A stretch of DNA of 64,000 nt, taken from assembly GCA_037178675.1 (NCBI GenBank), contig JAYMGJ010000206.1:186001-250000 (forward strand), in the 5' to 3' direction. The notes beneath the pieces are model-generated. The model saw nothing but the letters and a program-made list of their open reading frames with translations. It did no database searches and was not told the origin of the DNA. The stretch comes from Scleroderma bovista (lineage: Eukaryota > Basidiomycota > Agaricomycetes > Boletales > Sclerodermataceae). Below are positions 3-36,770 of the stretch, piece after piece. How positions within the stretch are numbered: the first letter of the stretch is position 1; each line of letters begins with the position of its first letter. The position numbers were made by a program, and so were the translations under genes.

Positions 3-2636
3 TCTACAGCAGCACCGACACCAGGACAAGCCTCAGCGCCCACATCCAAACCATCCACTCCACCAGCGCGTGTCTCTGCACCACCCTCCGCGCCAACCAC
101 ACCTCCCGCGCAGCGTCCCGTTGCGTCATCCCATTTGACATCCACCACGCATCTTCTGCTACATCCGCTAGTCCAGCAGTCCCAGTCGAGAGCGGTAAGA
201 ATCCCGCAGATGTCTGGGCCGAACACGCACGCGCCAGAAATGTCACTGCGTCTCTTGAAAGTCAAGGTGCACCTGCACAGGAACGCATAGTATCCCAGAA
301 ATAGTCCTTGGGGTCCTCCATTCGTACTACGTAGGCCCGGGTCGTCTTCGTCGTATGGTACACCATTCGCACCGGGTGCTTTGCAGAGCAGGAAAGCGAG
401 CCGCAGTTCGTTCCAGCCGCGCGAGTACCTATACCTGGGGCAATTCGAGCCATATTGGGTTCCATCAGGGGGCCCCTACTGAGCAGGTTTCCTGCACCTC
501 CGTTTGCAATTGGAGTATGAACTGAAGGGTGTCGTGGGTGATTAGTGTCCAGGATGACCCATTTGCTGACCCTAAGCGTGCGCCAGCCCAACCAGCTGTA
601 CCAGAGCAGGCTGCTGTGGCTCTCTCACCTGCTGAGACAATCCATGTACCAGAGTAAGCCCCGTCGCGTGTGTGTGTATGCGCGTTTCTACCGAGCTTGC
701 AGACCATTCGACCCACGTTCACCAAGAGACGACACGATGATACCAGCAACTGAACCAGTAACAATCCCACTTCGCCCATTCCACGAAGTCATTTCGACCC
801 AGGTAAGTCTTTAATATCCTCCGCGGGTGGTCCGGTAGTTGACGCACTCATAGACCCTTTTGTCAGCCATCTGGATACAGTACTGGCGATCGTAGGGACT
901 ACCTCAGCAAGAACCAGGCAGAGTACGCACTTCCCCGAATTCTACCGCACCTTTCTTGACATCCCTTTTCAGCGAACGTTGTCCCCTCATATCCCGTCCC
1001 TCAATGCCAATTTCCGCTTCTCCAACCCCCCTGTCACGCAACCAACTCCCCGATGGGCACAACCACCCCGATTACACGTCAACGGATCCGCAAGGAACTA
1101 CAGCTGCGGGTCATTTACGACGCCCTACGACGACCGCGGATGGTTCGAGCACATACTTCCCCACGGACTCAGATACTTCGGCAACCCTCGTAAAAGCGCA
1201 ACGGCCGACCTCGATCTGCGAAACTTTTTCAAACTCGATCAAGTAACGAGTGCTATTGATACGGTGGACAGTTATACCGGGGGGATGCGAGATATGGGTT
1301 AGGCCGAGCTACAAGGCAATGGGATGGAGGAGACAGAAGGCGCCCGGACAGCGTCATTTATTGGGTGGACCATAGGTACTATCGGATTCTGAAACGAGAT
1401 GCCTTCCGATGACCTGCCTGTCGGGAGAAGGTGATAGTGGGTTTTCGTACCTACTTCGTTGATGTTGCAGATGCTCATGTTTTACAGGGCTCGATGATGA
1501 GTACAGATACTGGTCCTACGTTGAGATTGGCATCTTGCTCATGTCATTCTTACACGCCCGTCAACACAGGAGGCCGCCGACACCCTTCATTGGTCGTATA
1601 CCTATCAGCTTCTTTCGCATCCCCAGCCCATCCAACCTCCCTTTAGCCAGGAGGAATGTCAGGAACTCATCAGACTACTCAATGGTGCGGCGTGCATCCT
1701 ACATTGCCTTGCCGTTTTTGATGGTTCCTCTACAGATCCTGGCCAGTAAGACTTTCATACATGCGCATGGTCGTGCGAATCCTATTACGAGTCGGTGCGT
1801 TCTGTTTTTGCATCGACTGCACGGAATCCCCGTCTTATCTTGTACACGCAGTACATTGGCGCCAGGTCCACTTCAGACCGCACAGACCCCTACCCCGCGA
1901 CATTAGTCATGTACACCGCAAGGCACACCGGTTCCGTACAGTGCTGGAAATCGTCGTCGGGATTATGGCTTGGAATTCTGTTCCTCTTCGTCGACAGAGC
2001 GAGGCACAGTAGTCATTTTGACGTGGAGAACAATACAGCTACGCCGAGCAGCGCTTCGCTATTCGTCATCGGCGGATGTGCATGTCTCGTGAGGAGGGCC
2101 GCATTCATGTTGTTGAAAGTCATACTCATCTCCTAACTATTGCATATGCCTAGTCGGCCATCATCCTCAGTGTTTTGGTGACGCTCATGACCCTGCCAGA
2201 ATTGGATAGTATAGCCCGGATTGGAGGTTTGGTCGCCATCTTATGCTCTGTGCTGAGCATGATCACATCTTTCGTATCTATTTTCCGGTATAAATCAGAA
2301 ATGGCACAGGGTGCAGCACAAACTGCTGGAGAAGGGTTTGTTCTGCTTCCTGTAAGCGTCATCCTTTGTTTAGGACCCTTTCGCCAGTCACTGACGACGG
2401 ATCTTTCAGCGCCGGAGCACCATGCTTTCGCTTCTGCTCGTGTTCCTTACGTATGCTTCGCTGGATTCATCACGGGCGTCGTCATATACTCGTTTAGGAG
2501 TGCTACCATCAACTTTGCTCATGCAGGAATGCCTGTCGCCTCCAAGTTTGATGAGTATGCGCGGTGGATGGTGATTGGTGTTCTTGGAGCTCTGACGGGG
2601 GTGTTGATCGCTTCTGTAATGGTGTCGAGGAGGTAA
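3..2636 (+). pseudogene. Frame-broken multi-exon gene, C-terminal membrane protein of unknown function
   Basis: Several open segments on the plus strand look like exons of one gene. A Pro/Ser/Thr/Ala-rich stretch covers about 3-290. A segment at about 840-1303 continues past a run of G near 1276 only after a frame change (VDSYTGG then CEIWVRP). A WVDH motif lies near 1370. A segment at about 1508-1750 includes FSQEECQELIRLLNG, and 1840-2040 carries HWRQVHF and PHRPLPRD. The last segment, 2175-2636, has three hydrophobic helices and ends ARWMVIGVLGALTGVLIASV. A likely intron of 58 nt sits at 2352-2409, and another frame slip occurs near 2451 (LSLLLVFLTYA then FAGFITGVVIYSF). It resembles a basidiomycete-specific family that I recall only loosely, so no function is assigned. 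Several frame changes outside plausible introns suggest a pseudogene, though assembly indels could also explain them. Confidence 0.5.
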
Positions 2637-3244: not shown

Positions 3245-4735
3245 ATGGCTCTTCAACCCACTGAGAAGCTTCAGCCTCGCTCAAGTTCCAATGCGAGTAA
3301 GTTTAGGCTCAATATCATGCATGCGATAGTAGTGATCGAACACTCTAGGTACTAAAACAGCACTTCGCACGGATCCTGTCGACCAGAGGGCTTGTACTAG
3401 TACTGTTGAAACTGGATTTCGCACCGATGCCACCAAGAATGTCCCACGCGACTCTACGGGAAGTATCCCTCGCATGGACCCTGCGATCGCCAGAAAGCAC
3501 TTCAATCGCATTGGCCGTTTTAGAATCCTTGTCATCGGCAGATCCAATGCTGGTAAAACAACACTCTTACAGCGCATTTGCAACACCACCGAGCTCCCGG
3601 AGGTCTTCAATTCCAAGGGAGAAAAGGTATGGGTATATCGTCCCACATTATAATTTATCATTCATTACATCAACTTGCTGAATATGCCAATTCCCAGATT
3701 GATCCTAAGGTTGTGCAGGGATCTCTGGAGGTGAGTTCATGACCTGCCCGTTACACCAAGTCACTTACTGTCCTCAGAGAGGAGAACATAACATTGAAAA
3801 TGAATTGATTTTTCGGAGCAATACAGGCTTCATCTTTCATGACTCCAGAGGATTTGAGGCTGGTTCCAAGGAGGAGGTAAAGCTGATGAAGAATTTTCTC
3901 ACAGACTGTGCAGCCGCAACGAAATTAGAAAGGCGAATCCATGCAATATGGTAAGGTCATGTAACTGAGTAACAGATAACTGATGCTAAGTGGAGCAGGT
4001 ATTGTATTCCATTGACTGATTCTGCAAGGCCAATTGTGGCTGCAGAAGAGCTCTTCTTCAATGAATGCAACACAGGAAAAGGTGAGATAGTCTGTTATGG
4101 TGATGGTGAAGGGTTCTGAAAATACATGGGATAGTTCCTGTGATTGTGGTGTTGACAAAGGCTGATGCGATGGAGTTAGAGGCAATTGGGCAGCTCAGGG
4201 ATAATGGATTGACAATGAAAGAAGCAAGGTCACAGGCAGGGGAATTAGTCAAACAACTGCTGACAGAGGTGAAGGCACGAATTGAAGACCAGTTGGCAGA
4301 GTGCAAGCACCATCCTAATGACTGTTTGGCACTGTTTGGGGGGTATCAATTCATTTAGATCTAGGCTTGTGCTGACTTCTCTCATTCATGCAGGTATGAA
4401 TAAAGCCAATGCAGATGGTGATCCACTTCTAAGGTGCACAGCAAATGCACTGGATGATATAGAACTGCAACACCTTTTGATATCAGCACAACAAGTCAAT
4501 TTCAACCTGAACATTGAATATGCTATCAAGTAAGAAGAAGATTGCCTTCCTGTGGCTGTTATATAATGGAACTTGGATCATTTGTAGATACATTATGAAG
4601 AAAGCAGATGGTCCATTTGACAAGAAAGCACTGGAATTGGGGATTCTGGATTGGATGCCATATGTAGAGGTATTGTCACCATTGGTGTTGCTTGTCATAT
4701 TCATGTAGATTTGTTTATAGGTGATTGTCTGGTGA
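3245..4735 (+). CDS. P-loop GTPase-domain protein, nine predicted exons
   Basis: Predicted exons are 3245-3296, 3349-3626, 3698-3730, 3778-3950, 3999-4081, 4135-4342, 4394-4529, 4588-4669 and 4721-4735, about 350 residues in all. The G1/P-loop (ILVIGRSNAGKTTLLQ) lies in exon 2, a G3-type DSRGF in exon 4 and the G4 motif TKAD in exon 6. This matches the expanded family of small cytosolic G-domain proteins with AIG1/septin-like P-loops common in agaricomycetes; substrate and partners are unknown. Exon 6 ends in six G (4338-4343), one more than the frame allows to join exon 7 (MNKANADGD), so the gene carries a one-base homopolymer shift or sequence error. The start is the first ATG in frame. The stop at 4733-4735 is uncertain, because an alternative donor at 4732 would feed the transcript into the adjacent repeat array. 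The 3' exons are more AT-rich than the 5' ones. Confidence 0.75.
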
Positions 4736-4802
4736 ATGCATTGGAAGGCAGCTAATGATAAAATGGTACATGGATTGCTATTGTGGCCTGTTTATTTGAC
4801 AG

Positions 4803-7800
4803 TCTGTGAGTGATTTCATGGCAGGTCCAGCTGGGTGTCTTCTCACAGTTTCACTCCCATCCTGGTCCTGTTGCCTTGACAGTGGGTGAGTGATTTCATG
4901 GCAGGTCCAGCTGGGTATCTTTTCACTGTTTTCACTCCCACTCTGGTCATGTTACCTTGATAGAGAGTGAGTGATTTCATGGCAGCTCCAGCTGGGTGTC
5001 TTCTCACTGTCTTCACTCTCACTTGGTCCTGTTTCCTTGACAGGCTGTGAGTGATTTCATGGCAGGTCCAGCTGGGTGTCTTCTCACTGTCCTCACTCAC
5101 ACTCTGGTCATGTGACATTGACAGAGAGTGAGTAATTTCATGGTAGGTTCAGCTGGGTGTCTTCTCACAATCCTCACTCCCACTCTGGTCATGTTACCTT
5201 GACAGGCTGTGAGTGATTTCATGGCAGGTCCAGCTGGGTGTCTTCTCATTGTCTTCACTCCCACTCTGGGCCTGTTGCCTTGACAGTCTGTGAGTGATTT
5301 CATGGCAGGTCCAGCTGGGTGTCTTCTCACTGTCCTCACTCACACTCTGGTCATGTGACATTGACAGAGAGTGAGTAATTTCATGGTAGGTTCAGCTGGG
5401 TGTCTTCTCACAATCCTCACTCCCACTCTGGTCATGTGACATTGACAGAGAGTGAGTAATTTCATGGTAGGTTCAGCTGGGTGTCTTCTCACAATCCTCA
5501 CTCCCACTCTGGTCATGTTACCTTGACAGGCTGTGAGTGATTTCATGGCAGGTCCAGCTGGGTGTCTTCTCATTGTCTTCACTCCCACTCTGGTCCTGTT
5601 GCCTTGACAGTGGGTGAGTGATTTCATGGCAGGTCCAGCTTGGTGTCTTCTCACTGTTTTCACTCCCACTCTGCTGCTGTTGCCCTGACAGGATGTGAGT
5701 GATTTCATGACAGGTCCAGCTGGGTGTCTTCTCATTGTCTTCACTCCCACATTGGTCATGTTGCCATGACAGGAAGTGAGTGATTTCATGGCAGGTCCAG
5801 CTGCATGTCTTCTGACTGTCTTCACTCCCACTCTGGTCCTGTTGTCTTGACAGTTTGTGAGTGATTTCATGGCAGGTCCAGCTGGGTGTTTTCTGACTGT
5901 CTTCACTCCTACTCTGGTCCTGTTGCCTACACAGTCTGTGAGTGATTCCATGGCAGGTCCAGCTGGGTGTCTTCTCACTCTCCTCACTCACACTCTGTTC
6001 CTGTTGCCTTGACAGTCTGTGAGTGATATCATGGCAGGTCCAGCTGGGTGTCTTCTCATTGTCCTCACTCCCACTTGGGTCATGTTACCTTGATAGAGAG
6101 TGTGTGATTTCATGGCAGGTCCAGCTGGGTATCTTCTCACTGTCTTCACTCCCACTCTGGTCCTGTTGCTTTGACAGTGGGTGAGTGATTTCATGGCAGG
6201 TTCAGCTGGGTGTCTTCTCACTGTCTTCACTCCCACTCTGGTCCTGTTGCCTTGACAGTGGGTGAGTGATTTCATGGCAGGTCCAGGTGGGTGTCTTCTC
6301 ACTGTCACTCCCATTCTGGTCATGTTGTCTTGATAGTCTGTGAGTGATTTCATGGCAGGTCCAGGTGGGTATCTTCTGACTGACTTCACTCCCACTCTGG
6401 CCATGTTGTCTTGACAGCAAGTGAGTGATTTCATGGCAGGTCCAGCTGGGTGTCTTGTCACTATCTTCACTCCAACTCTGATCTGGTTTCCTTGACAGAA
6501 AGTGTGTGATTTCATGGCCTGAGGCCCAGCTGGGTGTCTTCTCATGGTCTTCACTCCAACTCTTGCCCTGTTGTCTTGACAGTGGGTGAGTGATTTCATG
6601 ACAGGTCCAGTTGGGTGTCTTCTCACTGTTGTCACTCCCACTCTGGTCCTGTTGCCTTGACAGTCTGTGAGTGATTTAATGTCAGGTTGAGCTGGGTGTC
6701 TTCTCACTGTCTTCACTTGTACTCTGGTCCTGTTGCCTTGACAGGAAGTGAGTGATTTCATGGTTGGGCCAGCTGGGTGTCTTCTCACTGTCTTCACTCC
6801 CACTCTGGTCCTGTTGCCTTGACAGTGGGTGTGTGATTTCATGGCAGGTCCAGCTGGGTGTCTTCTCACTGTTTTCACTCCCACTCTGCTGCTGTTACCC
6901 TGACAGGATGTGAGTGATTTCATGACAGGTCCAGCTGGGTGTCTTCTCATTGTCTTCACTCCCACTTTGGTCCTGTTGCCATGACAGGATGTGAGTGATT
7001 TCATGGCAGGTCCAGCTGGGTGTCTTCTCACTGTCCTCACTCATACTCTGGTCATGTGACATTTACAGAGTGTGAGTGATTTCATGGTAGGTTCAGCTGG
7101 TTGTCTTCTCACCATCCTTACTCGGACTCTGGTCATGTTACCTTGACAGGCTGTGAGTGATTTCATGGCAGGTCCAGCTGGGTGTTTTCTGACTGTCTTC
7201 ACTCCCACTCTGGTCCTGTTGCCTTGACAGTGGGTGAGTGATTTCATGACAGGTCCAGCTTGGTGTCTTCTCACTTTTTTCACTTCCACTCTGCTGCTGT
7301 TGCCCTAACAGGATGTGAGTGATTTCATGATAGGTCCAGCTGGGTGTCTTCTCATTGTCTTCACTCCCACTTCGGTCCTGTTGCCATGACAGGAAGTGAG
7401 TGATTTCATGGCAGGTCCAGCCACTGCATGTCTTCTGACTGTCTTCACTCCTGCTCTGGTCCTGTTGCCTTGACAGTTTGTGAGTGATTTCATGGCAGGT
7501 CCAGCTGGGTGTTTTCTGACTGTCTTCACTCTTACTCTGGTCCTGTTGCCTAAACAGTCTGTGAGTGATTCCATTGCAGGTCCAGCAGGGTGTCTTCTGA
7601 CTGTCTCCACTCCCACTCTGGTCCTGTTGCCTTGACAGTGGGTGAGTGATTTCATGGCAAGTCCAACTGGGTGTCTTCTGATTGTCTTCACTCCCACTTT
7701 GGTCCTGTTGCCTTGAAAGGATGTGAGTGATTTCATGGCAGGTTCAGCTGAGGGTCTTCTGAGTGTCTTCACTCCCACTCTGGTCGTGTTGCCTTGACAG

Positions 7801-9775
7801 TCTGTGAGTGATTTCATGGCAGGTCCAGCTGGGTGGTGTCTGTCTCACTCCCACTCTGACTCCATGACACCCTGGTCCTGTTCTCACTGTCTTCACTCCC
7901 CTTGACTGTTGTCTTGGAAGTGAGTGATTTCATGACAGGTCCAGCTGGGGGTCTTCTCACTGGCATTGTTCCCACCCTGGGGGTCTGACAGCTCACTTCA
8001 TTGGGTCCCACTCTGGTCACTATTGCTTGACAGGAAGTGAGTGATTTCATGACAGGTCCAGCTGGTCTGGTGTCGTGATTTCTCATTGTCATCATTTCTG
8101 GCAAGTCCAGTTACTCTGGTCACTCTTGCCTGTTTTTCAGAGGTTGAGGTGAGTGATGCCTTCATGATTTCAGGTCCAGCTGGGTGGCTTCTCACTCTCC
8201 TGACAGTCTGTGAGTGATTTCCAGTCCCTGGGTGTCTTCTGTCTTCACTCCCACTTTGGTCCTGTTGCCTTGAAAGGATGTTGACAGGAAGGGTGAGTGA
8301 TTTCATGACAGGTCCAGCTGTCTTCTCACTCTCCTGACTCCCACCCTGGGTCAGGAAGTGAGTGATTTCCTCACTTCATTAACTCCCACTCTGGTCCTAT
8401 TGCTTGACAGGAAGTGAGTGATTTCATGACAGGTCCAGCTGGGTGTCTTCTCATTGTCATCACTCCCACTCTGGTCCTCTTGCCTTTTCAGAAGGTGAGT
8501 GATTTCATGACAGGTCCAGCTGGGTGGCTTCTCACTCTCCTGACTCCCACCCTGGTCCTGTTGCCTTGACAGGAAGTGAGTGATTTCATGACAGGTCCAG
8601 CTGTGTCTTCTTATTGTCTTCGCTCCCACCCTGGTCCTGTTGCCCTGACAGGAAGTGAGTGACTTCATGGCAGGTCCAGCTGGGTGGCTTCTCACTGTCA
8701 TCACTCCCACTCTGGTCCTGTTGCCTTGGCAGTTTGTGAGTGATTTTATGGCATGTTCAGTGGGGTGTCCTCTCACTGTCTTCACTCCCACTCTGCTCCT
8801 GTTGCCTTGACAGGCAGTGAGTGATTTCATTGCAGGTCCAGCTGGATGTCCCCTCACTGTCTTCATTCCCACTCTGGTCCTGTTGCCTTGACAGGCTGTG
8901 AGTGATTTCAAGGCATGTCCATCTGGGTGTCTTCTCACCCTCCTCACTGCCAATCTGGTCATACCTTGATAGAGAGTGAGTGATTTTATGGCACATTCAC
9001 TTGGGTGTCTTCTGACTGTCTTCACTCCCACTCTGGTCCTGTTGGCTTGGCAGTATGTGAGGAATTCAAGGTCATGTTGAGCTAGCTGTTTTCTTATTGT
9101 CTTCACTGCCAATCTGCTTTTGTTACCTTTCCAGGAGGTGAGTAATTTCCCCTTGTGTCTACTACTGAGTACCTTTTTGATTGTTTATTCCTCCCACTCC
9201 TGTCTTGTTATCTTGATAGTTTGTAAGGAATTTTGTATCACATCTGAGTGTCTTTTCACTCACTTAAACTCCACTCTGCCATTCCTATATCCACAGCTGG
9301 TGAGTGAACTACCACATATCTGACTGGGCATATTTCCTCATTAGCACACTGTCTTTACTATGGTGCCATTTTCTTGATAGAGTGTGAGTGCTTTCATCCC
9401 AGGTCTAGCTTTGTGTTTTCTCACTGTTATTTTCCCCACCATCATTGTGGTTTGTCAACAGACAGTGAGTGATGCCATGTATATATCATTGTACTCTCAC
9501 ACCAATGCCCTGCCTTTTCATCTCTTTAGCAAGTCAGTCGATTTCCATCATTAGCCTCTGATGGTCATTATTGTGCACTTTTCTTACATCACTTTTTAAG
9601 GATGTTAGTCATTTCTATACCTTCTTCACACCACCTATCCTTTACTTATTTCACATTTTATAGGCAGTAAGTTATCATTTTCCCATTCACTGATATGTTT
9701 CAATGTGTGTCCTTAGAATCTGGTATGTTTTTGTTTTCTGTCCATCATATCTCCATCATATCTCCCACATAGCAT
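4803..9775 (+). repeat. Tandem intron-like array with three-base spacers (AG-NNN-GT), about 63 units
   Basis: The homogeneous part (about 4803-7850) has an 81-bp period. Each unit starts GTGAGTGATTTCATGGCAGG and ends CCTTGACAG. Three bases then precede the next GTGAGT. The 78-nt block has a consensus 5' splice site, a pyrimidine-rich 3' half and AG, as in a fungal intron; some units carry CTGAC, a branch-point-like word. The triplet varies (for example TCT, TGG, AGA, GCT, GAT, GAA, TTT, CAA, AAA) and I found no TAA, TAG or TGA among the units. From 7850 to 8400 the array is scrambled, with some units longer, shorter or missing AG. From about 9120 to 9775 the bodies no longer resemble the consensus, yet AG-NNN-GT recurs every 63-114 bp near 9135, 9220, 9295, 9380, 9461, 9530, 9600, 9664 and 9773; one unit near 9717 has six bases. 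Function is unknown. It starts about 70 bases after the GTPase gene. Confidence 0.9.
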
Positions 9776-10004
9776 GTCAGTCAATTTTTCATGGTTTTAC
9801 CCTTAGCTTATGGTTGTCATTGCAACAAAGAAAATACTTTTCATCAATGGTTTTGAAATACCTGTTTTGTGCCCATCTCACATGGAGTCTTCTGTGCAGC
9901 AGTGGATAATACATGGTGCTGGTGAGGCACATCCAGTCTTTGTCCATAATTTCTGAATATTTCAAAGGATGTATCCTCATCTTTGAGTACTCCTACTTCT
10001 ATTT

Positions 10005-10917
10005 ACAAGCAATAGCAGATCAGAAGAACATCATTGCACTTGCAGTTAAGGAATACCAAGAGTCTAGCATTCAAAGTACTGTTGTTGTGGCCCTTCAACA
10101 CACTATCCAAGAACATAATAAAGATCATATGAAATTACAGCAGGCCATTTTTGATATCATTGTGGAAAACCGCATGTGTAAGTTTGTATTATTTATAAAT
10201 ACATGAAATCTTGAATCAAGTTTTGTCTCAGCAAACAAATTCAATTTGGCACAGCAGTCAACAAATCAGGCTTGATCACACCAGATTTTCTGTTGATAGG
10301 TATATTTTTGTCCATGCTATCATTCCAAAATGAATGTATATTAATACCTTTATCTAGTACAAAGCATCTTTCTCCTCAATGTCAACTGTCCAAATAGGTT
10401 GTGTGTTTTTGAAGGAAGCATATCCTTCATGGTTTTTGAATTTTATTTGCATGCATAGTGCATACATAGAAGAAACAAAATGCACAATCAGATAGCAGTA
10501 CCTTTTACAGGGGTAGGGATTGTTTATTTTGTACCTCTGTACCCTTATGCCACAACCCCTGATACCCCTCTGTACTGTGCACCTGAATTACTCCCAAGCA
10601 CTGTGGCTTGACACATCCTGTATGGTTGCTTGTCAATCCACATTTCAACATCATCTGCACTCCCACCAGCCAGGTTTTCCCAATTATCTCTCTTGCTTCT
10701 CACAATTATGTTCTTAAAAAGGATTTCTTGACCCACAGAAAATGCTCAAGCATTACAGGAAGAATGCCAACATAAATGTACAACTCATGCTATGGATAAC
10801 ATGATTGATCAACACAAAAGATGTAGGACAGAGGCAAGCACAACAACTAATCAGCTTTCACCACAGTCTGTTGAAGCAATACCTATATACGTAGAGGAAC
10901 TGCTACTCCAACTCACC
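10005..10917 (+). pseudogene. Coding remnant downstream of the array, cut by a copia LTR
   Basis: Two open segments look like exons. One is at about 10005-10177 (it includes QEHNKDHMKLQQAIFDIIVE and ends at a GTAAGT donor). The other is at about 10737-10917 (it includes ENAQALQEECQHKCTTHAMD), after an acceptor CCCACAG. The composition is polar and helical. I recognise no domain, and the phase between the two segments is unresolved. The second segment stays open until 10917, where a copia LTR begins, so its 3' end is lost. The remnant may be the continuation of the gene that contains the AG-NNN-GT array, since no other promoter or start is evident; that link is inference. Confidence 0.4.
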
Positions 10918-11136: not shown

Positions 11137-12994
11137 CTCCCCCTCGCTGTGCTGCACGTAGAGCACTTCAATGAATAAGGCACTAGATGCTGCCAGAGGG
11201 AAACTGTAAGCCTAGTTGAGCTCTGAACTTTGCGAATTTCTCGCGGAGTAAGTTCTTGGTGAGCAGATCAGCAGAATTTTCAGCACCATCAATGAAGAAT
11301 AGTTCCACGTTACCTTTCGTGACTGACTCACAGATTCCATGGTAGCAGATATTGATGTGCTTGGAGCGAGGCTCCATTACGGGGTTGGATGCCATGAATA
11401 TGGACCCCTGATTATCACCCACGAATCGGGATAGCATTCAGCTTATAGCCGAGCTCACCAAGTAAGCTTTGAATCCAGGTAACTTGGCGAGCGCAATCAC
11501 TCAAAGCCATGTATTCAGCCTCAGTGGATGAGTATGCAATAGTCTTCTGCACATGAGAAGTCCAACTGATCAAGCCATCTGCAAGCTTCAGGTAGAAACC
11601 TGTCTGCGAGAGGTGAAAGGTAGGGTCTGATCCCCAATCTGAGTCCGTGCATGCAATCAGGCCAGCACCAGATCCACTGTTGTATACTAGGGAGTATGTA
11701 GGTGTCCCAATTAAATAGCGACAGATATACAGTGCTTTGTTTAGGTGGTCCTGGGATGGGTTTGCGGCATGGTGCGAGAGGTGTGTGACTGCAAAAGCAA
11801 TGTCAGGCCTAGTGCCTAACATGAGATACAGAAGGGACCCAATAACCATCTGGAAATGGGAGCGGAGTTCCACATCAACAGGCTCTGTGTTCTTGGTGGC
11901 ATAGTAGCCAGCTGGCAGTGGGGTGCTTGTGGACTTTGCATTTAGCATGCCGCAGCATTCAATGACCTTTTGTAGGTATGCACATTGATCCAGGTGGATA
12001 GTGTGACCCTTGTGAGTGATTCACATTTGGAGGAACTCATTTGGTTCTCCAAGGTCTCTGCACTCCCATTTGCACATGAATTGTGCTTTGATGGCATCAA
12101 CAACAGCCTTGTTAGGGCCACAGAATAGAGCATCGTCAACATAGATAATACCAATGATGATGTTGGTGCCCTTCTTCTTGTAGAAGAAGATGCCTGCTTC
12201 AGACTTAAGGCGCTCAAACCCGAGCTCTTTGAGAGACTCATTGAGTGTGTGCCACCAAGCTAGGCCGGCCTGTTTAAAGCCATAGAGGGCATGCCAGAGG
12301 TGGAGCACTTTGTGCTCTTGCCCAGGAACTGCAAACCCTTTGGGTTGTTCCATGTAGATCTCTTCGTCAAGCTTGCCATACAAGTAGGTGCTCCGAACAT
12401 CGAGTCCAGTGATATACCAGTTTTCTAGTGCAGCAAGTGCAAGCATAAGGTGCACTGTTTCAAAGCACACTACTGGTGAGAAGACCTGGTGGAAATCCAA
12501 TCCCTCGACCTGGGAGAAGCCTTTCACTACTAGGTGGGCTTTCTTGTGGCCATCTGACTTAATGTCGAAGACCCATCAATTCTTAATGACCTTCCGGTCT
12601 CAGGGATGGTCAACTAGCTCAAAGACCTTGCACTTTTGCAGCATGTTGAGCTCTTCTTGGCAAGCAAGTCACCAGAGTTTCTGCTCAGCTTGGGGTAAGT
12701 GAGTGATGTCCTTGTAGGACCAATTGCAAATGCTCTCATATTGAGGCTCACAGGTTTCGAGGGCTTTGCCCATCAGGAAACAGACTAGGTTTGCTCCCCC
12801 TTCCTCGCACATCTTTTGCACATCTTCCTCACTGAGCGTTGCAGAGGTGTTGGGGAAACCACCAGGGATATGGTCTGGTGTGTCTGGTTGTGGGGGCCTA
12901 GAGGCCTCACCCACTGTTTGTTGCCATCGAGAGGCACTTTCAATATCCTGGAGTTGCTCAATGGGATGTTGCCGCTCACCATACATGTTACTGG
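11137..12994 (-). pseudogene. Truncated Ty1/copia polyprotein (RT and RNase H)
   Basis: Minus-strand segments in three frames together give a copia pol C-terminus. At 12541-12669 there is a KN*WVFDIKSDG block where copia normally has KNRWVF (CGA to TGA). At 12021-12527 lies the RT core with DFHQVFSPVV, LDVRSTYLYG and the catalytic YVDD. At 11415-11948 are GTRPDIAFAV and the RNase H region with TDSDWGSD and SSTEAEYMALS. At 11183-11437 is the ending NSADLLTKNL. Frame shifts near 11420, 11945 and 12240 and the nonsense codon show it is dead. Gag, protease and integrase are missing; the 5' side stops at an L1 LTR at 12995. Confidence 0.85.
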
Positions 12995-14638: not shown

Positions 14639-16980
14639 TGTGCGCCTAAGTGAGGGAAGAGGTCAGAACAACCAACAACCAACACCAAATGACAGCAATA
14701 TGCGAGTGGTGGTCTTCCTTTGCATTTCTGGTATTTAATGTCCTCAGGGGGATGTGCTGCACGCCTTCAGGCAGGATGCAGGAGGGAAGGGAAGGGCTTC
14801 TGATGGGGATGGGATGCGACTTGGGATGGTATTGACTCCTCTTCAGCCTACCACAGTGGTTAGGAAGAGTCCTGGGATAGAAGAGTGATGATAGATTGAT
14901 GATAGGGGTGATACAGCAGTGATGGGGCAGAGGGGAAGCAAGGGGACAGGGTTCCTGCTTCAAAAATGCGATGAACAGTGATGGGATGGAGTGGACAGAG
15001 ATGCTAGACTGCGCTTGAGCCTAGAGAAATGATCAGATACAAGATATATCTGATAAACAGCAATATAGGAGCTTTAGGCCAGCACTGAGTGACCTACAAG
15101 TCCAAAGACAGAGATAGAGCTTATAAACAGTGAGGGAGAGTGAATGTGGTCGCTTTATTGAGGGGGAAGCAGACACTTCCTTGCAGCCTTTGGCTGCTGG
15201 TTTATATACAGGAGGGGCTGTGGCCCTGTAAGCACAAATGACTAAGTGCTTGGTAAGAGATTGGTAAGAAATTGGTAAGCGATTGATAAGCAGTGTAATC
15301 AGGCTGAGTCATCAATGGGGAGAGCCTGAACAAGCTGCTGAGCCAAGGGAAAGAGCAAAAACATAGGTAAAAAGGGGTGTATAACCAAGAATATGGAAAA
15401 ATCATTGCATGGGGCCCAAAAGAGAGGGGGGGAAAGCATGGGATGAGTAGATTGAAGCTAAATGAGCATATGCGATGACATAATGCATATGAATCATAGG
15501 GGCATGAGTCATGAATTGATAAGCAGCATGATAAGCATGATTTGAAGGATGATTGGTAAGTGATTGGTAAGGGGAGTAATGGGGATTAGTAATGCCAAGA
15601 GGGGATGAATAATGCGCAGCAGAGTGAGTCAGAGTGAGCCAGAGTGACTCTGTGTGACTCAGACAGAAGGGAAGCACAACCTGTGATTGATTGAACTTTA
15701 GATCTGGAGATGAGCTTCTGAAGCAGTGCCACTGATGGGAGTGGCTGGGGGATAATAAAAGAATTGATCCGACCAGAAGAGCAGTGTCAGGGGGCCTGGA
15801 ATGACAAGTAGAGTCACAGCTGGTCACAGAGTGTCACAAATCCCTTGGATTGAGCTTCTGTAGAGCAAAAATGCGAAATTTGGTGCTCCCAAAGTGCAGT
15901 CTTCCCTTGAGCAGTAAGGGGAAGGTTCTGTACTCTATTAGGGCTCCTAAGAAGTGTTCTAGAGCACTGTTTCATTTGTGTTTGTTGCGGGATAGCAGCG
16001 AAGTGAAACATGAATAGCAGATTCGACGTGTCCAGGGAAGCAAGATGAATGATAGAGGGAGATGGATGTGACAGGACTCTGGGATGAAAGGACCATATGC
16101 AGAGGACTCAGGAGACACAGAGACGACCAGGTATGAATTTTCAAGTCTAACGATAGACTTGAGACGACCAAAGTATGTGCACAATGCAGGACTGATGAGG
16201 AGAACGTGCTGACTGAGAACAACAGGGACTGAGGGAGCAGGCTGGGAAGATATGTACCAGACAGTACACAGGAGATCATGGAGAGGCTGTCCCAAGAGCA
16301 GGACATAGTTGAGGTCTGTTGCAATAGCGGAGAAACGTTCCAGAGAAAATGTGGACTCCATAGTGAGTGATGAAGCAGGTGTCTGGATTGCGGGTGGAAT
16401 ATCTCCGTGGGAAATAAACAGATTTACGTCGGAACTTGACAGGCAGATAGACCACGGTCTAGGCTCCATGATGGTATAGTCACATGATTGATAGCTTCAA
16501 AAATGGCGGAGCTATTCAAAATATCGGAATGCCGGCACTGGGTGCCTAAATTTGACATTTGGGTGCTAAAAATGATTCTTCCTTTTCTCCTTTGTTTCTC
16601 TGTTGTTTCTTCTGCTTCTTTGGTTGTTCTGGTATGGGAGTTGGACTGCAGTAGGTTGCATTCCTCTCTCATACTGAAATGATCATCAATCCTCGGATTC
16701 TTCTGCTTCTTGGCGGTTCTCGTGCGATAGATGACTGTCAGCATTGGCATTCATCTCTTTCATCAGGATAGTCATTCTCATGCAATAGATGGCTATGACA
16801 AGCTTGTATTCATTCTTCGCATAAGGATAGTCTTGACTTTGCGTGATATGGATAGCAAGGGCTGTCTGTATCCCTCAAGTCGGGACAATCTTTCAACAGA
16901 TCTTGGGTGTGTTCTTCGCATTAGTTTCATCGGCTAACTTTCTCCATGTCCACAGTACCAAACATGTTTGGTGCATGACA
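14639..16980 (-). mobile_element. L1-family solo LTR, full length (2,342 bp)
   Basis: Read on the minus strand it runs from TGTCATGCACCAAACATG at 16980 to CTTAGGCGCACA at 14639. It contains a TATA-like box (TATATAAACCAG), AATAAA near the middle and tandem TTACCAAT words. The flanks TCGC (14635-14638) and TCAC (16981-16984) fit a 4-bp target duplication with one C/T change. Removing the LTR and one flank copy joins CGA TCA GAT CGC to ATC TCA and restores the host exon frame. No internal retroelement domain is present. Confidence 0.8.
15972..16469 (-). CDS. LTR-borne 165-codon ORF (L1 copy 2)
   Basis: This copy is almost identical to the one at 13507-14004; a CGT replaces TGT near the C-terminus (PWTRR for PWTCR). 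It is full length and sits inside an LTR that has a target duplication. Confidence 0.4.
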   Translation of the reverse strand: MEPRPWSICLSSSDVNLFISHGDIPPAIQTPASSLTMESTFSLERFSAIATDLNYVLLLGQPLHDLLCTVWYISSQPAPSVPVVLSQHVLLISPALCTYFGRLKSIVRLENSYLVVSVSPESSAYGPFIPESCHIHLPLSFILLPWTRRICYSCFTSLLSRNKHK

Positions 16981-31420: not shown

Positions 31421-32694
31421 AACCTTCCCCTTACTGCTCAAGGGAAGACTGCACTTCAGGAGCACCAAATTTCGCATTTTTGCTCTACAGAAGCTCAATC
31501 CAAGGGATTTGTGACACTCTGTGATACTCTGTGACCAGCTGTGACTCTACTTGTCATTCCAGGCCCCCTGACACTGCTCTTCTGGTCAGATCAATTCTCT
31601 TATTATCCCCCAGCCACTCCCATCAGTGGCACTGCTTCAGAAGCTCATCTCCAGATCTAAAGTTCAATCAATCACAGGTTGTGCTTCCCTTCTGTCTGAG
31701 TCACACAGAGTCACTCTGGCTCACTCTGACTCACTCTGCTGCGCATTATTCATCCCCTCTTGGCATTACTAATCCCCATTACTCCCCTTACCAATCACTT
31801 ACCAATCATCCTTCAAATCATGCTTATCATGCTGCTTATCAATTCATGACTCATGCCCCTATGATTCATATGCATTATGTCATCGCATATGCTCATTTAG
31901 CTTCAATCTACTCATCCCATGCTTTCCCCCCCTCTCTTTTGGGCCCCATGCAATGATTTTTCCATATTCTTGGTTATACACCCCTTTTTACCTATGTTTT
32001 TGCTCTTTCCCTTGGCTCAGCAGCTTGTTCAGGCTCTCCCCATTGATGACTCAGCCTGATTACACTGCTTATCAATCGCTTACCAATTTCTTACCAATCT
32101 CTTACCAAGCACTTAGTCATTTGTGCTTACAGGGCCACAGCCCCTCCTGTATATAAACCAGCAGCCAAAGGCTGCAAGGAAGTGTCTGCTTCCCCCTCAA
32201 TAAAGCGACCACATTCACTCTCCCTCACTGTCTATAAGCTCTATCTCTGTCTTTGGACTTGTAGGTCACTCAGTGCTGGCCTAAAGCTCCTATATTGCTG
32301 TTTATCAGATATATCTTGTATCTGATCATTTCTCTAGGCTCAAGCGCAGTCTAGCATCTCTGTCCACTCCATCCCATCACTCTCCATCACATTCTTGAAG
32401 CAGGAACTGTCCCCTTGCTTCCCTGTTGTCCCATCACTGCTGTTACACCCCTATTGTCAATCTATCATCGCTGCTCAATCCCAGGACTCTTCCTAACCAC
32501 TGTGGTAGGCTAAAGAGGAGTCAATACCATCCCCAGTCATATCTATTCCCCATCAGAAGCCCTTCCCTTCCCTCCTGCACCTTGCCTGAAGGTGTGCAGC
32601 ACATTCCCCTGTGGAGATTAAATACCAGAACCACAAAGGAAGACCACCACTCACTTTTGTTGTCATTTGGTGTTGGTTGTTGGTTGTTCTGACC
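31421..32694 (+). mobile_element. L1-family LTR, truncated at both ends
   Basis: It matches the 3' half of L1 from AACCTTCCCCTTACTGC to GGTTGTTCTGACC, including the TATA-like TATATAAACCAG near 32152 and AATAAA near 32200. The first ~1.05 kb, including the LTR-borne ORF, and the terminal ~20 bp are missing. Confidence 0.75.
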
Positions 32695-32801: not shown

Positions 32802-35134
32802 TGTGCGCCTAAGTGAGGGAAGAGGTCAGAACAACCAACAACCAACACCAAATGACAGCAATATGTGAGTGGTGGTCTTCCTTTGCGGTTCTGGTATTTA
32901 ATCTCCACAGGAGAAGGTGCTGCACACCTTCAGGCAGGATGCAGGATGGAAGGGAAGGGCTTCTGATGGGGATGGAATGCGACTTGGGATGGTATTGACT
33001 CCTCTTCAGCCTACCACAGTGGTTAGGAAGAGTCCTGGGATAGAAGAGTGATGATAGATTGATGATAGGGGTGTAACAGCAGTGATGGATCAACAGGGAA
33101 GCAAGGGGACAGGGTTTCTGCTTCAAAAATGCGATGAACAGTGATGGGATGGAGTGGACAGAGATGCTAGACTGCGCTTGAGCCTAGAGAAATGATCAGA
33201 TACAAGATATATCTGATAAACAGCAATATAGGAGCTTTAGGCCAGCACTGAGTGACCTACAAGTCCAAAGACAGAGATAGAGCTTATAGACAGTGAGGGA
33301 GAGTGAATGTGGTCGCTTTATTGAGGGGGAAGCAGACACTTCCTTGCAGCCTTTGGCTGCTGGTTTATATACAGGAGGGGCTGTGGCCCTGTAAGCACAA
33401 ATGACTAAGTGCTTGGTAAGAGATTGGTAAGAGATTGGTAAGCAATTGATAAGCAGTGTAATCAGGCTGAGTCATCAATGGGGAGAGCCTGAACAAGCTG
33501 CTGAGCCAAGGGAAAGAGCAAAAACATAGGTAAAAAGGGGTGCATAATCAAGAATATGGAAAAATCATTGCATGGGGCCTAAAAGAGAGGGGGGGAAGCA
33601 TGGGATGAGTAGATTGAAGCTAAATGAGCATATGCGATGACATAATGCATATGAATCATAGGGGCATGAGTCATGAATTGATAAGCAGCATGATAAGCAT
33701 GATTTGAAGGATGATTGGTAAGTGATTGGTAAGGGGAGTAATGGGGATTAGTAATGCCAAGAGGGGATGAATAATGCGCAGCAGAGTGAGTCAGAGTGAG
33801 CCAGAGTGACTCTGTGTGACTCAGACAGAGGGGAAGCACAACCTGTGATTGATTGAACTTTAGATCTGGAGATGAGCTTCTGAAGCAGTGCCACTGATGG
33901 GAGTGGCTGGGGGATAATAAAAGAATTGATCCGACCAGAAGAGCAGTGTCAGGGGGCCTGGAATGACAAGTAGAGTCACAGCTGGTCACAGAGTGTCACA
34001 AATCCCTTGGATTGAGCTTCTGTAGAGCAAAAATGCGAAATTTGGTGCTCCCAAAGTGCAGTCTTCCCTTGAGCAGTAAGGGGAAGGTTCTGTACTCTAT
34101 TAGGGCTCCTAAGAAGGGTTCTAGAGCACTGTTTCATTTGTGTTTGTTGCAGGATAGCAGGGAAGTGAAACGTGAATAGCAGATTCGACATGTCCAGGGA
34201 AGCGAGATGAATGATAGAGGGAGATGGATGTGACAGGACTCTGGGATGAAAGGACCATATGCAGAGGACTCAGGAGACACAGAGACAACCAGGTATGAAT
34301 TTTCAAGTCCAACGATAGACTTGAGACAACCAAAGTACGTGTGCGACGCAGGACTGACAAGGAGAATGCGCTGACCAAGAACAAGAGGGACTGAGGGAGC
34401 AGGCTGGGAAGATATGTACCAGACAGTACACAGGAGCTCAGGGAGAGGCTGTCCCAAGAGCAGGACGTAGTTGAGGTCTGCTGCAATAGCGGAGAAACGT
34501 TCCAGAGAAAATGTGGACTCCATAGTGAGTGATGAAGTGGGTGTCTGGATTGCGGGTGGAATATCTCCATGGGAAATAAACAGATTTACGTCGGAACTTG
34601 ACAGGCAGATAGACCACGGTCTAGGCTCCATGATGGTATAGTCATAGCTTCAAAAACGGCGGAGCTATTCAAAATATCGGAATGCCAGCACTGGGCACCT
34701 AAATTTGACATTTGGGCGTTAAAAATGATTCTTCCTTTTCTTCTTTGTTTCTCCATCATTTCTTCTGCTTCTTTGGTTGTTCTGGTATGGGAGTTGGACT
34801 GCAGTAGGTTGCATTCCTCTCTTATACTGAAATGATCATCAACCCTTGGATTCTTCTGCTTCTTGGCGGTTCTCATGCGAGGGATGACTGCCAGACGATG
34901 GCATTCATCTCTTGCTCCAGGATAGTCATTCTTGTGTGATAGATGGCTATGATGAGCTTGTATTCATTCCTCGCATAAGGATAGTCTTGACTTTGCGTGA
35001 TATGGATAGCGAGGGCTGTCTGTATCCCTCAAGTCGGGACAATCTTTCAACAGATCTTGGGTGCGTTCTTCACATTAATTTCATTGGCTAACTTTCTCCA
35101 TGTCCACAGTACCAAACATGTTTGGTGCATGACA
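32802..35134 (-). mobile_element. L1-family solo LTR, full length (2,333 bp)
   Basis: The minus-strand ends are TGTCATGCACC (35134) and CTTAGGCGCACA (32802). Target duplications CCAC at 32798-32801 and 35135-35138 are perfect and 4 bp. The interrupted copia frame is restored on removal. It is nearly identical to the copy at 14639-16980. Confidence 0.9.
34134..34631 (-). CDS. LTR-borne 165-codon ORF (L1 copy 3)
   Basis: This is the same frame as at 13507-14004, with substitutions such as LPELLC for LHDLLC, VVLSQ to LVLGQ and LISPALC to LVSPASH. It is fully open. Confidence 0.4.
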   Translation of the reverse strand: MEPRPWSICLSSSDVNLFISHGDIPPAIQTPTSSLTMESTFSLERFSAIAADLNYVLLLGQPLPELLCTVWYISSQPAPSVPLVLGQRILLVSPASHTYFGCLKSIVGLENSYLVVSVSPESSAYGPFIPESCHIHLPLSFISLPWTCRICYSRFTSLLSCNKHK

Positions 35135-36539: not shown

Positions 36540-36770
36540 GTGTCACATCCATGCCAACCCCTACACATCTCCTACTTGCTCCGATGCATCTTCTCTTTGC
36601 TCCAACATCTCTCCTACCAACTCCGATGTCTCTCCTACCAACTCTGACGTCTCTCCTATTTGCTCCGACACATCTCCTACCATCTCTGACATCTCTCCTA
36701 CCAACTCCGATGTTTCTCCTCCAAACTCCTACTCTGTTCCTCCGGCCCATCCGGCCCACTTCTGTCATAC
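36540..36770. repeat. 21-bp minisatellite (CTCCGACATCTCTCCTACCAA-type)
   Basis: About ten copies of a roughly 21-bp unit occur, with variable second halves (CAACTCCGATGTCTCTCCTAC and variants). The plus-strand frame across it encodes seven-residue repeats such as LLPTPMS, but nothing suggests a real gene. From 36341 to 36539 and from 36771 to 36998 I see no gene; the right-hand part has a TATA-like word (GTATATAAGCC) and may be retroelement sequence. Confidence 0.65.

What the first reader, a model, noticed from the sequence alone, without database searches (positions are those of the whole stretch)
4803..9775. Tandem array of about 63 intron-like units separated by exactly three bases (possible single-codon exons)
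Each unit is a near-perfect fungal intron (GTGAGT ... AG) and the next begins after exactly three bases. The triplet varies between units while the AG and GT on either side are kept. The triplets seen are AAA, AAG, ACA, AGA, AGT, CAA, CAT, CTG, GAA, GAG, GAT, GCA, GCT, TAT, TCT, TGG and TTT; none is a stop codon. In the right-hand part (9120-9775) the intron bodies no longer resemble the consensus, but AG-NNN-GT is still kept in nine of ten units. A plain minisatellite would not be expected to keep that spacing while losing everything else. The closest known parallel is the micro-exon genes of schistosomes, which use symmetric exons, but not single codons. Joined triplets are stop-free in phase 0 over the array and in phase 2 over about the first 40 units; phase 1 has stops. 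An array of introns with no exon function (for example tandem introner-like duplication) is the main alternative.
Basis: partly seen in the sequence, partly recalled or inferred. Interest (0 to 1): 0.9.

Follow-up and report, generated by a model that had tools for sequence, protein, structure and literature searches.

The report
Fungal genes with single-codon exons
In a mushroom relative of earthballs, a family of GTPase genes appears to carry long stretches of protein spelled one codon per exon, each codon separated from the next by a small intron, and in most copies studied the introns are nearly identical while the codons differ.

Summary
Window 4803-9775 is a chain of about 60 three-base exons in a P-loop GTPase gene of a Scleroderma-like fungus. 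The unit pattern occurs 898 times in this genome (reversed control 0); 24 of 25 arrays studied lie between matches to the same two gene parts, the 25th at a contig end. In 25 arrays, 899 triplets hold no stop (about 146 expected), although triplets are over ten times more variable than introns. In a distant paralog AG-NNN-GT persists although the introns are no more alike than shuffled sequence. Terminal single-codon exons CAA and GAT are kept in 21 of 21 aligned copies. P0001, a protein of a related species on a contig too short to be genomic, runs from the GTPase into an array-like peptide and then one unit intron in frame. Most likely each codon is an exon and the gene encodes a GTPase with a hypervariable peptide, introns serving as homology for codon shuffling. 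Splicing is inferred, without reads from this species; peptide function is unknown. Ten literature searches listed no parallel.

The parts
3333..3629 (+). GTPase exon with P-loop (GRSNAGKTT), tblastn extent
   Evidence: C206:189333-189629; Pfam MMR_HSR1 at its cut-off on this ORF
3775..4092 (+). GTPase middle exons (contains intron; tblastn extent)
   Evidence: C206:189775-190092
4128..4340 (+). GTPase exon VPVIVVLTKAD..., tblastn extent
   Evidence: C206:190128-190340
4393..4530 (+). exon MNKANADGDPLL...NIEYA, tblastn extent
   Evidence: C206:190393-190530
4588..4669 (+). last large exon before the array (YIMKKADG...WMPYVE); donor after 4669 is in phase 0
   Evidence: sequence; same exon matched before the six subfamily A arrays; phase read by eye
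4670..4802 (+). intron(s) leading into the array; holds AG|GT at 4719-4722, a possible zero-length exon or recursive splice point
   Evidence: alignment of paralogs; inference
4803..7803 (+). regular part of the array: 38 three-base exons (TCT 4803-4805 to TCT 7801-7803) separated by introns of 75-81 bp, mostly 78
7804..8354 (+). rearranged stretch: some units broken (near 7919 the acceptor is lost); intact triplets GAA 8034-8036 and TCT 8207-8209
8355..9137 (+). second regular part: 11 single-codon exons, GAA 8355-8357 to GAG 9135-9137
9220..9775 (+). diverged units with single-codon exons TTT, CTG, AGT, ACA, CAA (9530), GAT (9601), GCA (9664), the two-codon exon AATCTG (9717-9722) and CAT (9773-9775)
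   Evidence: CAA and GAT the same in 21 of 21 rows of three subfamilies
9807..9921 (+). exon after the array (LMVVIATKKILFINGFEIP...WIIHGA), ends in phase 1
   Evidence: paralog alignments and ORF list; boundaries inferred
9968..10177 (+). C-terminal exon (CILIFEYSYFYLQ...IVENRM)
   Evidence: 41 genomic matches, whose query began with 11 residues that I now take for intron; boundaries inferred from paralogs

Best explanation
The array is a run of about 60 consecutive single-codon exons within one GTPase gene. The spliceosome removes each roughly 78-base intron (GTGAGT ... ACAG) and joins the triplets in phase 0, so the mRNA carries a peptide of about 60 residues between the GTPase domain and a conserved C-terminal part. 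Each unit of intron plus codon adds exactly one residue and cannot shift the frame, so gain, loss, conversion or exchange of units between arrays rewrites the peptide in whole-residue steps. Shown by sequence: spacing, lack of stops, kept splice sites and terminal codons, the place in one gene family, codons far more variable than introns. Supported by one cDNA-like protein of a relative: splicing. Inferred: that the window's own array is spliced throughout, that unit exchange within and between arrays drives the diversity, and that selection for a diverse peptide keeps it. What the peptide does is not known; by eye many arrays read like helical segments and some are rich in Gly and Tyr.
For: 898 exact units genome-wide, reversed control 0. 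Gap from acceptor to donor exactly 3 in 708 of 752 donors in 21 arrays. 899 triplets from 25 arrays: 0 stops; 146.1 expected from base frequencies; 2000 within-array shuffles gave a minimum of 119. Other phases have 8 of 839 and 56 of 839 stops. Triplet heterozygosity 0.63/0.63/0.54 against an intron mean of 0.048 and maximum of 0.153 in 741 units of exactly 81 bp. In L017, 25 of 26 exact units have the same 78-bp intron while the array uses 10 codons. In L033 23 of 26 strong donors have a YAG exactly 3 bases upstream (shuffle mean 0.10, maximum 2), although its intron cores are 56.0% alike against 53.8% for shuffled ones; L034 48 of 65, intron cores 65.2% against 54.6%. CAA and GAT kept in 6/6, 9/9 and 6/6 rows of subfamilies A, B, C (one C row, L026, dropped), then one codon, a two-codon exon that varies partly by synonymous changes, and one codon (one C row has a gap there). 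Triplets that would compete as splice sites are rare in the arrays: NAG 4 of 304 Q/E/K codons against 522 of 1000 in large exons. P0001: GTPase ORF aligned over all of the joined-exon query, then a 79-residue tail with 7 Trp (8.9%; arrays 7.8%, large exons 0.5%), then VSDFMAGPAGC, the unit intron read in frame 0; its 2346-nt contig cannot hold 79 units of 81 bp. Pisolithus proteins P0092 and P0108 contain stretches that by eye are translations of a similar intron.
Against: No RNA reads of this species were available. P0001 is one protein from another species; its DNA and exon boundaries were not seen, and part of its tail could come from ordinary longer exons. That its source code 'lgn' means assemblies of public reads is recalled. 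A search with its tail found only itself, so there is no second array transcript from Scleroderma. The window's array has a rearranged stretch (7804-8354) with broken units, so this copy may be partly defective. Units counted were chosen by likeness to a consensus of the intron ends, and by the 3-base gap, which lowers intron variation and raises GT/AG constancy somewhat. NAG avoidance is not strict: AGA (37 of 899) holds AG, and 5 of 6 C rows have CAG as a terminal codon. Splicing 60 introns with 3-base exons has no precedent that I know of. The diversification mechanism is inference: the link between a triplet and its intron is only partial.
Confidence: 0.9

Rival explanations
1. A tandem intron array (minisatellite or introner-like) with no exon function: the whole array is removed as one long intron or by serial splicing in which the triplets are lost.
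For: Units are repetitive and some are broken in the window. Fungal introner-like elements are known (start of abstract of PMC4457414; abstract of PMC9860276). Several deposited proteins of relatives end soon after the homologous exon or go on without an array-like tail (by eye).
Against: 0 stops in 899 triplets against 146 expected; diverse codons between identical introns; spacing kept where introns have lost their likeness; CAA and GAT conserved; P0001 carries a peptide between GTPase and unit intron. The TTG unit, matched 100 times, lies 3' of a family GTPase exon on the same strand in all 100 cases (my comparison), unlike introners spread over many genes.
Confidence: 0.05
2. The minus strand encodes a protein of 27-residue repeats with one hypervariable residue per repeat.
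For: The period is 81 bp and two minus-strand frames are largely open (ORFs up to 350 aa in the window).
Against: In the frame where the triplet is a codon, 82 of 741 exact units hold a stop, and 35 of 741 in the other open frame; unit lengths other than 81 do not respect 3 (32, 29 and 36 by remainder). It does not explain GT and AG kept in diverged units or P0001.
Confidence: 0.02
3. Single-codon exons are real, but the diversity comes from reverse splicing or intron-only conversion that homogenises introns while leaving old codons untouched, not from shuffling of whole units.
For: Introns identical between different codons; weak link between a triplet and neighbouring intron variants.
Against: Same-triplet pairs share intron variants more than different-triplet pairs on both sides (mean difference per site 0.035 against 0.053 and 0.034 against 0.053); multi-unit blocks recur with their codons, as in L014 and L020; each array uses nearly one codon per amino acid (19 minority synonyms of 899), as expected if units are copied whole. 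L017 and L024, whose neighbouring DNA is 99.3% identical over 5.8 kb, have codon orders that align hardly better than shuffled ones (14 of 200 shuffles as good).
Confidence: 0.25

Closest known systems
Single-nucleotide and other ultra-small exons (Arabidopsis APC11, PMC4674806; Fusarium CYP621A, PMC12940212)
   Same: Exons of one to a few bases can be spliced, in a fungus too (starts of abstracts; passages of PMC12940212).
   Different: Those are single micro-exons; here dozens follow each other, each exactly one codon, and the codons are hypervariable.
Micro-exon genes of schistosomes (recalled)
   Same: Many short symmetric exons; possible generator of protein variation.
   Different: Recalled: exons there are several codons long and variation comes by alternative splicing; here single codons between near-identical introns and variation between gene copies in DNA.
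Introners / introner-like elements (PMC9860276, PMC4457414)
   Same: Many near-identical introns in one genome.
   Different: As far as checked, confined to one place in one gene family, in tandem at every codon, and not scattered through genes.
Hypervariable repeat proteins, for example fungal NLR repeats or nematode HYP effectors (recalled)
   Same: Tandem units homogenised except at positions that vary between copies.
   Different: The homogenised part is removed as intron; only the variable codon stays in the mRNA.

Membership tests
Micro-exon gene | series of internal exons far below normal size, in phase | tested here: met
   exons of 3 bases (one of 6), read in phase 0
Micro-exon gene | exons shown by RNA to be spliced in | tested here: inconclusive
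   only P0001 from a relative; no reads of this species
Micro-exon gene | alternative splicing of the micro-exons | not testable with these tools
   no RNA data
Introner | near-identical introns with splice sites | tested here: met
Introner | copies dispersed in unrelated genes | tested here: not met
   100 of 100 TTG-unit matches lie 3' of a family GTPase exon on the same strand (compared by eye); the 898 matches were listed only in part
Introner | target-site duplication or terminal inverted repeats | not tested
   -
P-loop GTPase family of Boletales (MMR_HSR1-like) | P-loop and G-domain match | tested here: met
   PF01926 over its cut-off in P0001 and P0093, below it in P0087, at its cut-off in the window exon; 1555 homologs, 120 listed
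Minisatellite | all positions of the unit drift alike | tested here: not met
   triplets over ten times more variable than introns

The most novel reading that the evidence does not exclude
These genes are a codon-by-codon peptide writer: an array in which the coding letters are single-codon exons carried on interchangeable intron cassettes, so that recombination between identical introns inserts, deletes and reorders single residues without ever breaking the frame, producing a different peptide in nearly every gene copy, perhaps every strain, for recognition between individuals or with the plant partner.
Probability: 0.5. Interest if true: 0.97.

Novelty: categorically new. Interest (0 to 1): 0.94.

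Why it matters
If confirmed, it is the extreme limit of exon size used systematically: dozens of single-codon exons in a row, which gene finders and short-read aligners would be expected to miss. It would show that intron definition alone can splice such chains, give a natural test of the minimum exon, and reveal a way to vary proteins residue by residue by recombination inside introns. One pair of arrays with near-identical introns and neighbouring DNA has nearly unrelated peptides, which raises the question of what selects for the diversity.

Tried and rejected
Rejected: plain minisatellite, minus-strand coding, array as one long intron (see rivals). A search for proteins carrying the window's C-terminal part found none at E <= 0.001 among 233 candidates (its region included 11 residues that I now take for intron). 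A search with P0001 residues 318-453 found only P0001. No viral contig holds the unit. No Rfam match at gathering score in the window. The AlphaFold model of P0001 is weak (mean pLDDT 61.8); it draws the tail as long helices, 344-381 and 384-431, and its fold matches are GTPases with TM-scores to the query of at most 0.36 in the 50 rows listed of 696. A sequence search of solved structures gave only weak GTPase matches. P0090 may be a second cDNA-like protein, from a Pisolithus relative, but this was not tested. The BLAST listing of flanks was cut to 120 rows for each side, and the output was cut in its C part. Ten literature searches listed no array of single-codon exons; four of them returned no paper, and searches listed only part of their hits. 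Papers were seen as listings with the start of abstracts, plus passages of PMC12940212 and the outline, abstract and opening of PMC9860276.
Full report
Observation. Triplets flanked by AG and GT run from 4803 to 9775. A chain search that did not bar stops gave 62 nodes, 61 of three bases and one of six (AATCTG); two in the rearranged stretch 7804-8354 are not credible splice sites, one of them holding the only stop. The diverged right-hand part keeps the spacing: 7 of 8 strong donors have a YAG exactly three bases upstream, shuffle mean 0.04.

Genome. The assembly has 51.8 Mb in 850 contigs. The strict pattern AGNNNGTGAGTGATTTCA occurs 898 times, its reversed control 0 times. I fetched 20 further arrays and six more family loci in smaller pieces. 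Best named protein relatives of the gene are Scleroderma yunnanense, then S. citrinum, Imleria, Pisolithus and Astraeus (120 of 1555 listed), so the organism is a Scleroderma-like member of the Boletales; its species is not known to me.

One gene family. The flanks of 22 arrays show three subfamilies, A (window, L009-L012, L016), B (L013-L015, L018-L020, L023, L027, L028) and C (L017, L021, L022, L024-L026, L029) (listing cut, lists assembled by me). The exon YIMKKADG...WMPYVE precedes the six A arrays; the C-terminal query has 41 genomic matches. Of the 25 arrays studied, 24 lie between a GTPase match and a C-terminal match (my comparison); the 25th, L014, runs to a contig end upstream. In A, B and C the donor before the array is in phase 0 by my reading of the alignments. 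All 100 matches of the TTG unit lie downstream of a family GTPase exon on the same strand (compared by me); 98 also lie upstream of a C-terminal match on that strand, one of these 22.6 kb away, and two on C442 have none.

Triplets as codons. In 25 arrays I read 899 triplets of 32 kinds. None is a stop, where base frequencies predict 146.1 and 2000 within-array shuffles never gave fewer than 119. In the other two phases the joined triplets hold 8 of 839 and 56 of 839 stops. No triplet ends in C (0 of 899; 20.0% of 5149 codons in large exons), and NAG is 4 of 304 among Q/E/K codons against 522 of 1000 (96 in-frame matches in 23 of 27 loci). Avoiding NAG is what a splicing code needs, since it would add a competing acceptor; but AGA is used 37 times, and 5 of 6 C rows have CAG as a terminal codon. 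The lack of NNC I do not explain.

Codons vary, introns hardly. In 741 units of exactly 81 bp, within-array heterozygosity is 0.63, 0.63 and 0.54 at the triplet and on average 0.048 in the intron, at most 0.153. These units were chosen by likeness of the intron ends, so intron variation is somewhat underrated. In L017 25 of 26 exact units share one identical 78-bp intron while the array uses ten codons. Each array uses nearly one codon per amino acid (19 minority synonyms of 899), and different arrays choose different ones (AGA or CGA for Arg, GCT or GCA for Ala). L017 and L024 have neighbouring DNA that is 99.3% identical over 5806 columns; their introns agree at 99.6% but their codon orders align hardly better than shuffled ones (14 of 200). 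Four other pairs keep some codon order (0 to 4 of 200 shuffles as good), and L010/L011 does not (36 of 200). RNA polymerase Rpb2-type matches lie on two contigs, which gives no sign of a doubled assembly but is one weak test; the L017/L024 pair may be alleles or a recent duplication.

Diverged paralogs. In L033 23 of 26 strong donors have a YAG exactly 3 bases upstream, no other gap up to 40 occurs more than twice, and shuffles give 0.10 on average; its intron cores are 56.0% alike against 53.8% for shuffled cores, so the repeat likeness is gone. L034 is intermediate: 48 of 65 donors against a shuffle mean of 0.59, intron cores 65.2% against 54.6%. Their chains have 28 and 58 nodes without a stop. 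At the 3' end of the arrays the single-codon exons CAA and GAT are kept in 6 of 6, 9 of 9 and 6 of 6 rows of A, B and C (L026 dropped from C), followed by one more codon, a two-codon exon (AATCTG, AAYTTG and relatives, GCATTA) and one more codon, with one gap in C.

Transcript-like evidence. P0001 (453 aa, contig of 2346 nt) covers all of the joined GTPase exons at 82% identity, then continues with a tail of 79 residues rich in K, E, S, L and W, then VSDFMAGPAGC, which is the unit intron GTGAGTGATTTCATGGCAGGTCCAGCTGGGTGT read in frame 0. A genomic copy would need about 6 kb for that tail, so the contig must be cDNA-like. At 82% it comes from a relative. Pisolithus proteins P0092 and P0108 include stretches that by eye resemble the translated unit intron (VSEFMASLAGCLLTGLTSTVLWF; VSELMAGLTGCVLNVLTCTL), so arrays probably exist there too, read through by gene prediction.

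Mechanism. Most likely each intron is spliced on its own by intron definition, and each unit adds one residue. Identical introns are homology for unequal exchange and conversion, which copy whole units, codon included; same-triplet units share intron variants more than others and blocks of units recur. Selection for a diverse, stop-free peptide would keep the codons apart. These last steps are inference. The AlphaFold model of P0001 draws the tail as helices at low to moderate confidence; some other arrays read as Gly/Tyr-rich (L018, L028), so one common fold is unlikely.

Known and new. Ultra-small exons are known singly, one base in Arabidopsis and Fusarium. Introners give many similar introns. 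Ten full-text searches listed no case of arrays of single-codon exons. I therefore rate the architecture as categorically new, subject to RNA proof.

Noticed in passing
window 11183-12575, minus strand: ORFs that read like a decayed Copia-type retrotransposon polyprotein (ORF list; label recalled).
   Followed up: no
window 4719-4722: AG followed at once by GT, 82 bp before the first triplet, present in 6 of 6 subfamily A rows and in the 8 B rows that have sequence there: a zero-length exon or recursive splice point.
   Followed up: partly
window 15250-15290, 15620-15663, 31695-31738, 32068-32108, 33413-33453, 33782-33825: The same two minisatellites appear in pairs at three places, one of them inverted, which suggests three copies of one larger element.
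   Followed up: no
window 36554-36729: Tandem array of 21-bp units (consensus CTCCGACGTCTCTCCTACCAA), a multiple of 3, so possibly coding.
   Followed up: no
G000 C127:106376-130700: A family copy whose C-terminal match lies 22.6 kb beyond its TTG unit, where the matching C298 copy has it within 3 kb: probably a large insertion.
   Followed up: no
25 arrays: No triplet ends in C (0 of 899), and Ile, Asn, Val, Thr, Met and His are nearly absent; competing splice sites explain only part of this.
   Followed up: partly
window 2154-2636: ORF of 160 aa that by eye reads like a membrane protein, upstream of the GTPase gene; no Pfam match over cut-off.
   Followed up: no
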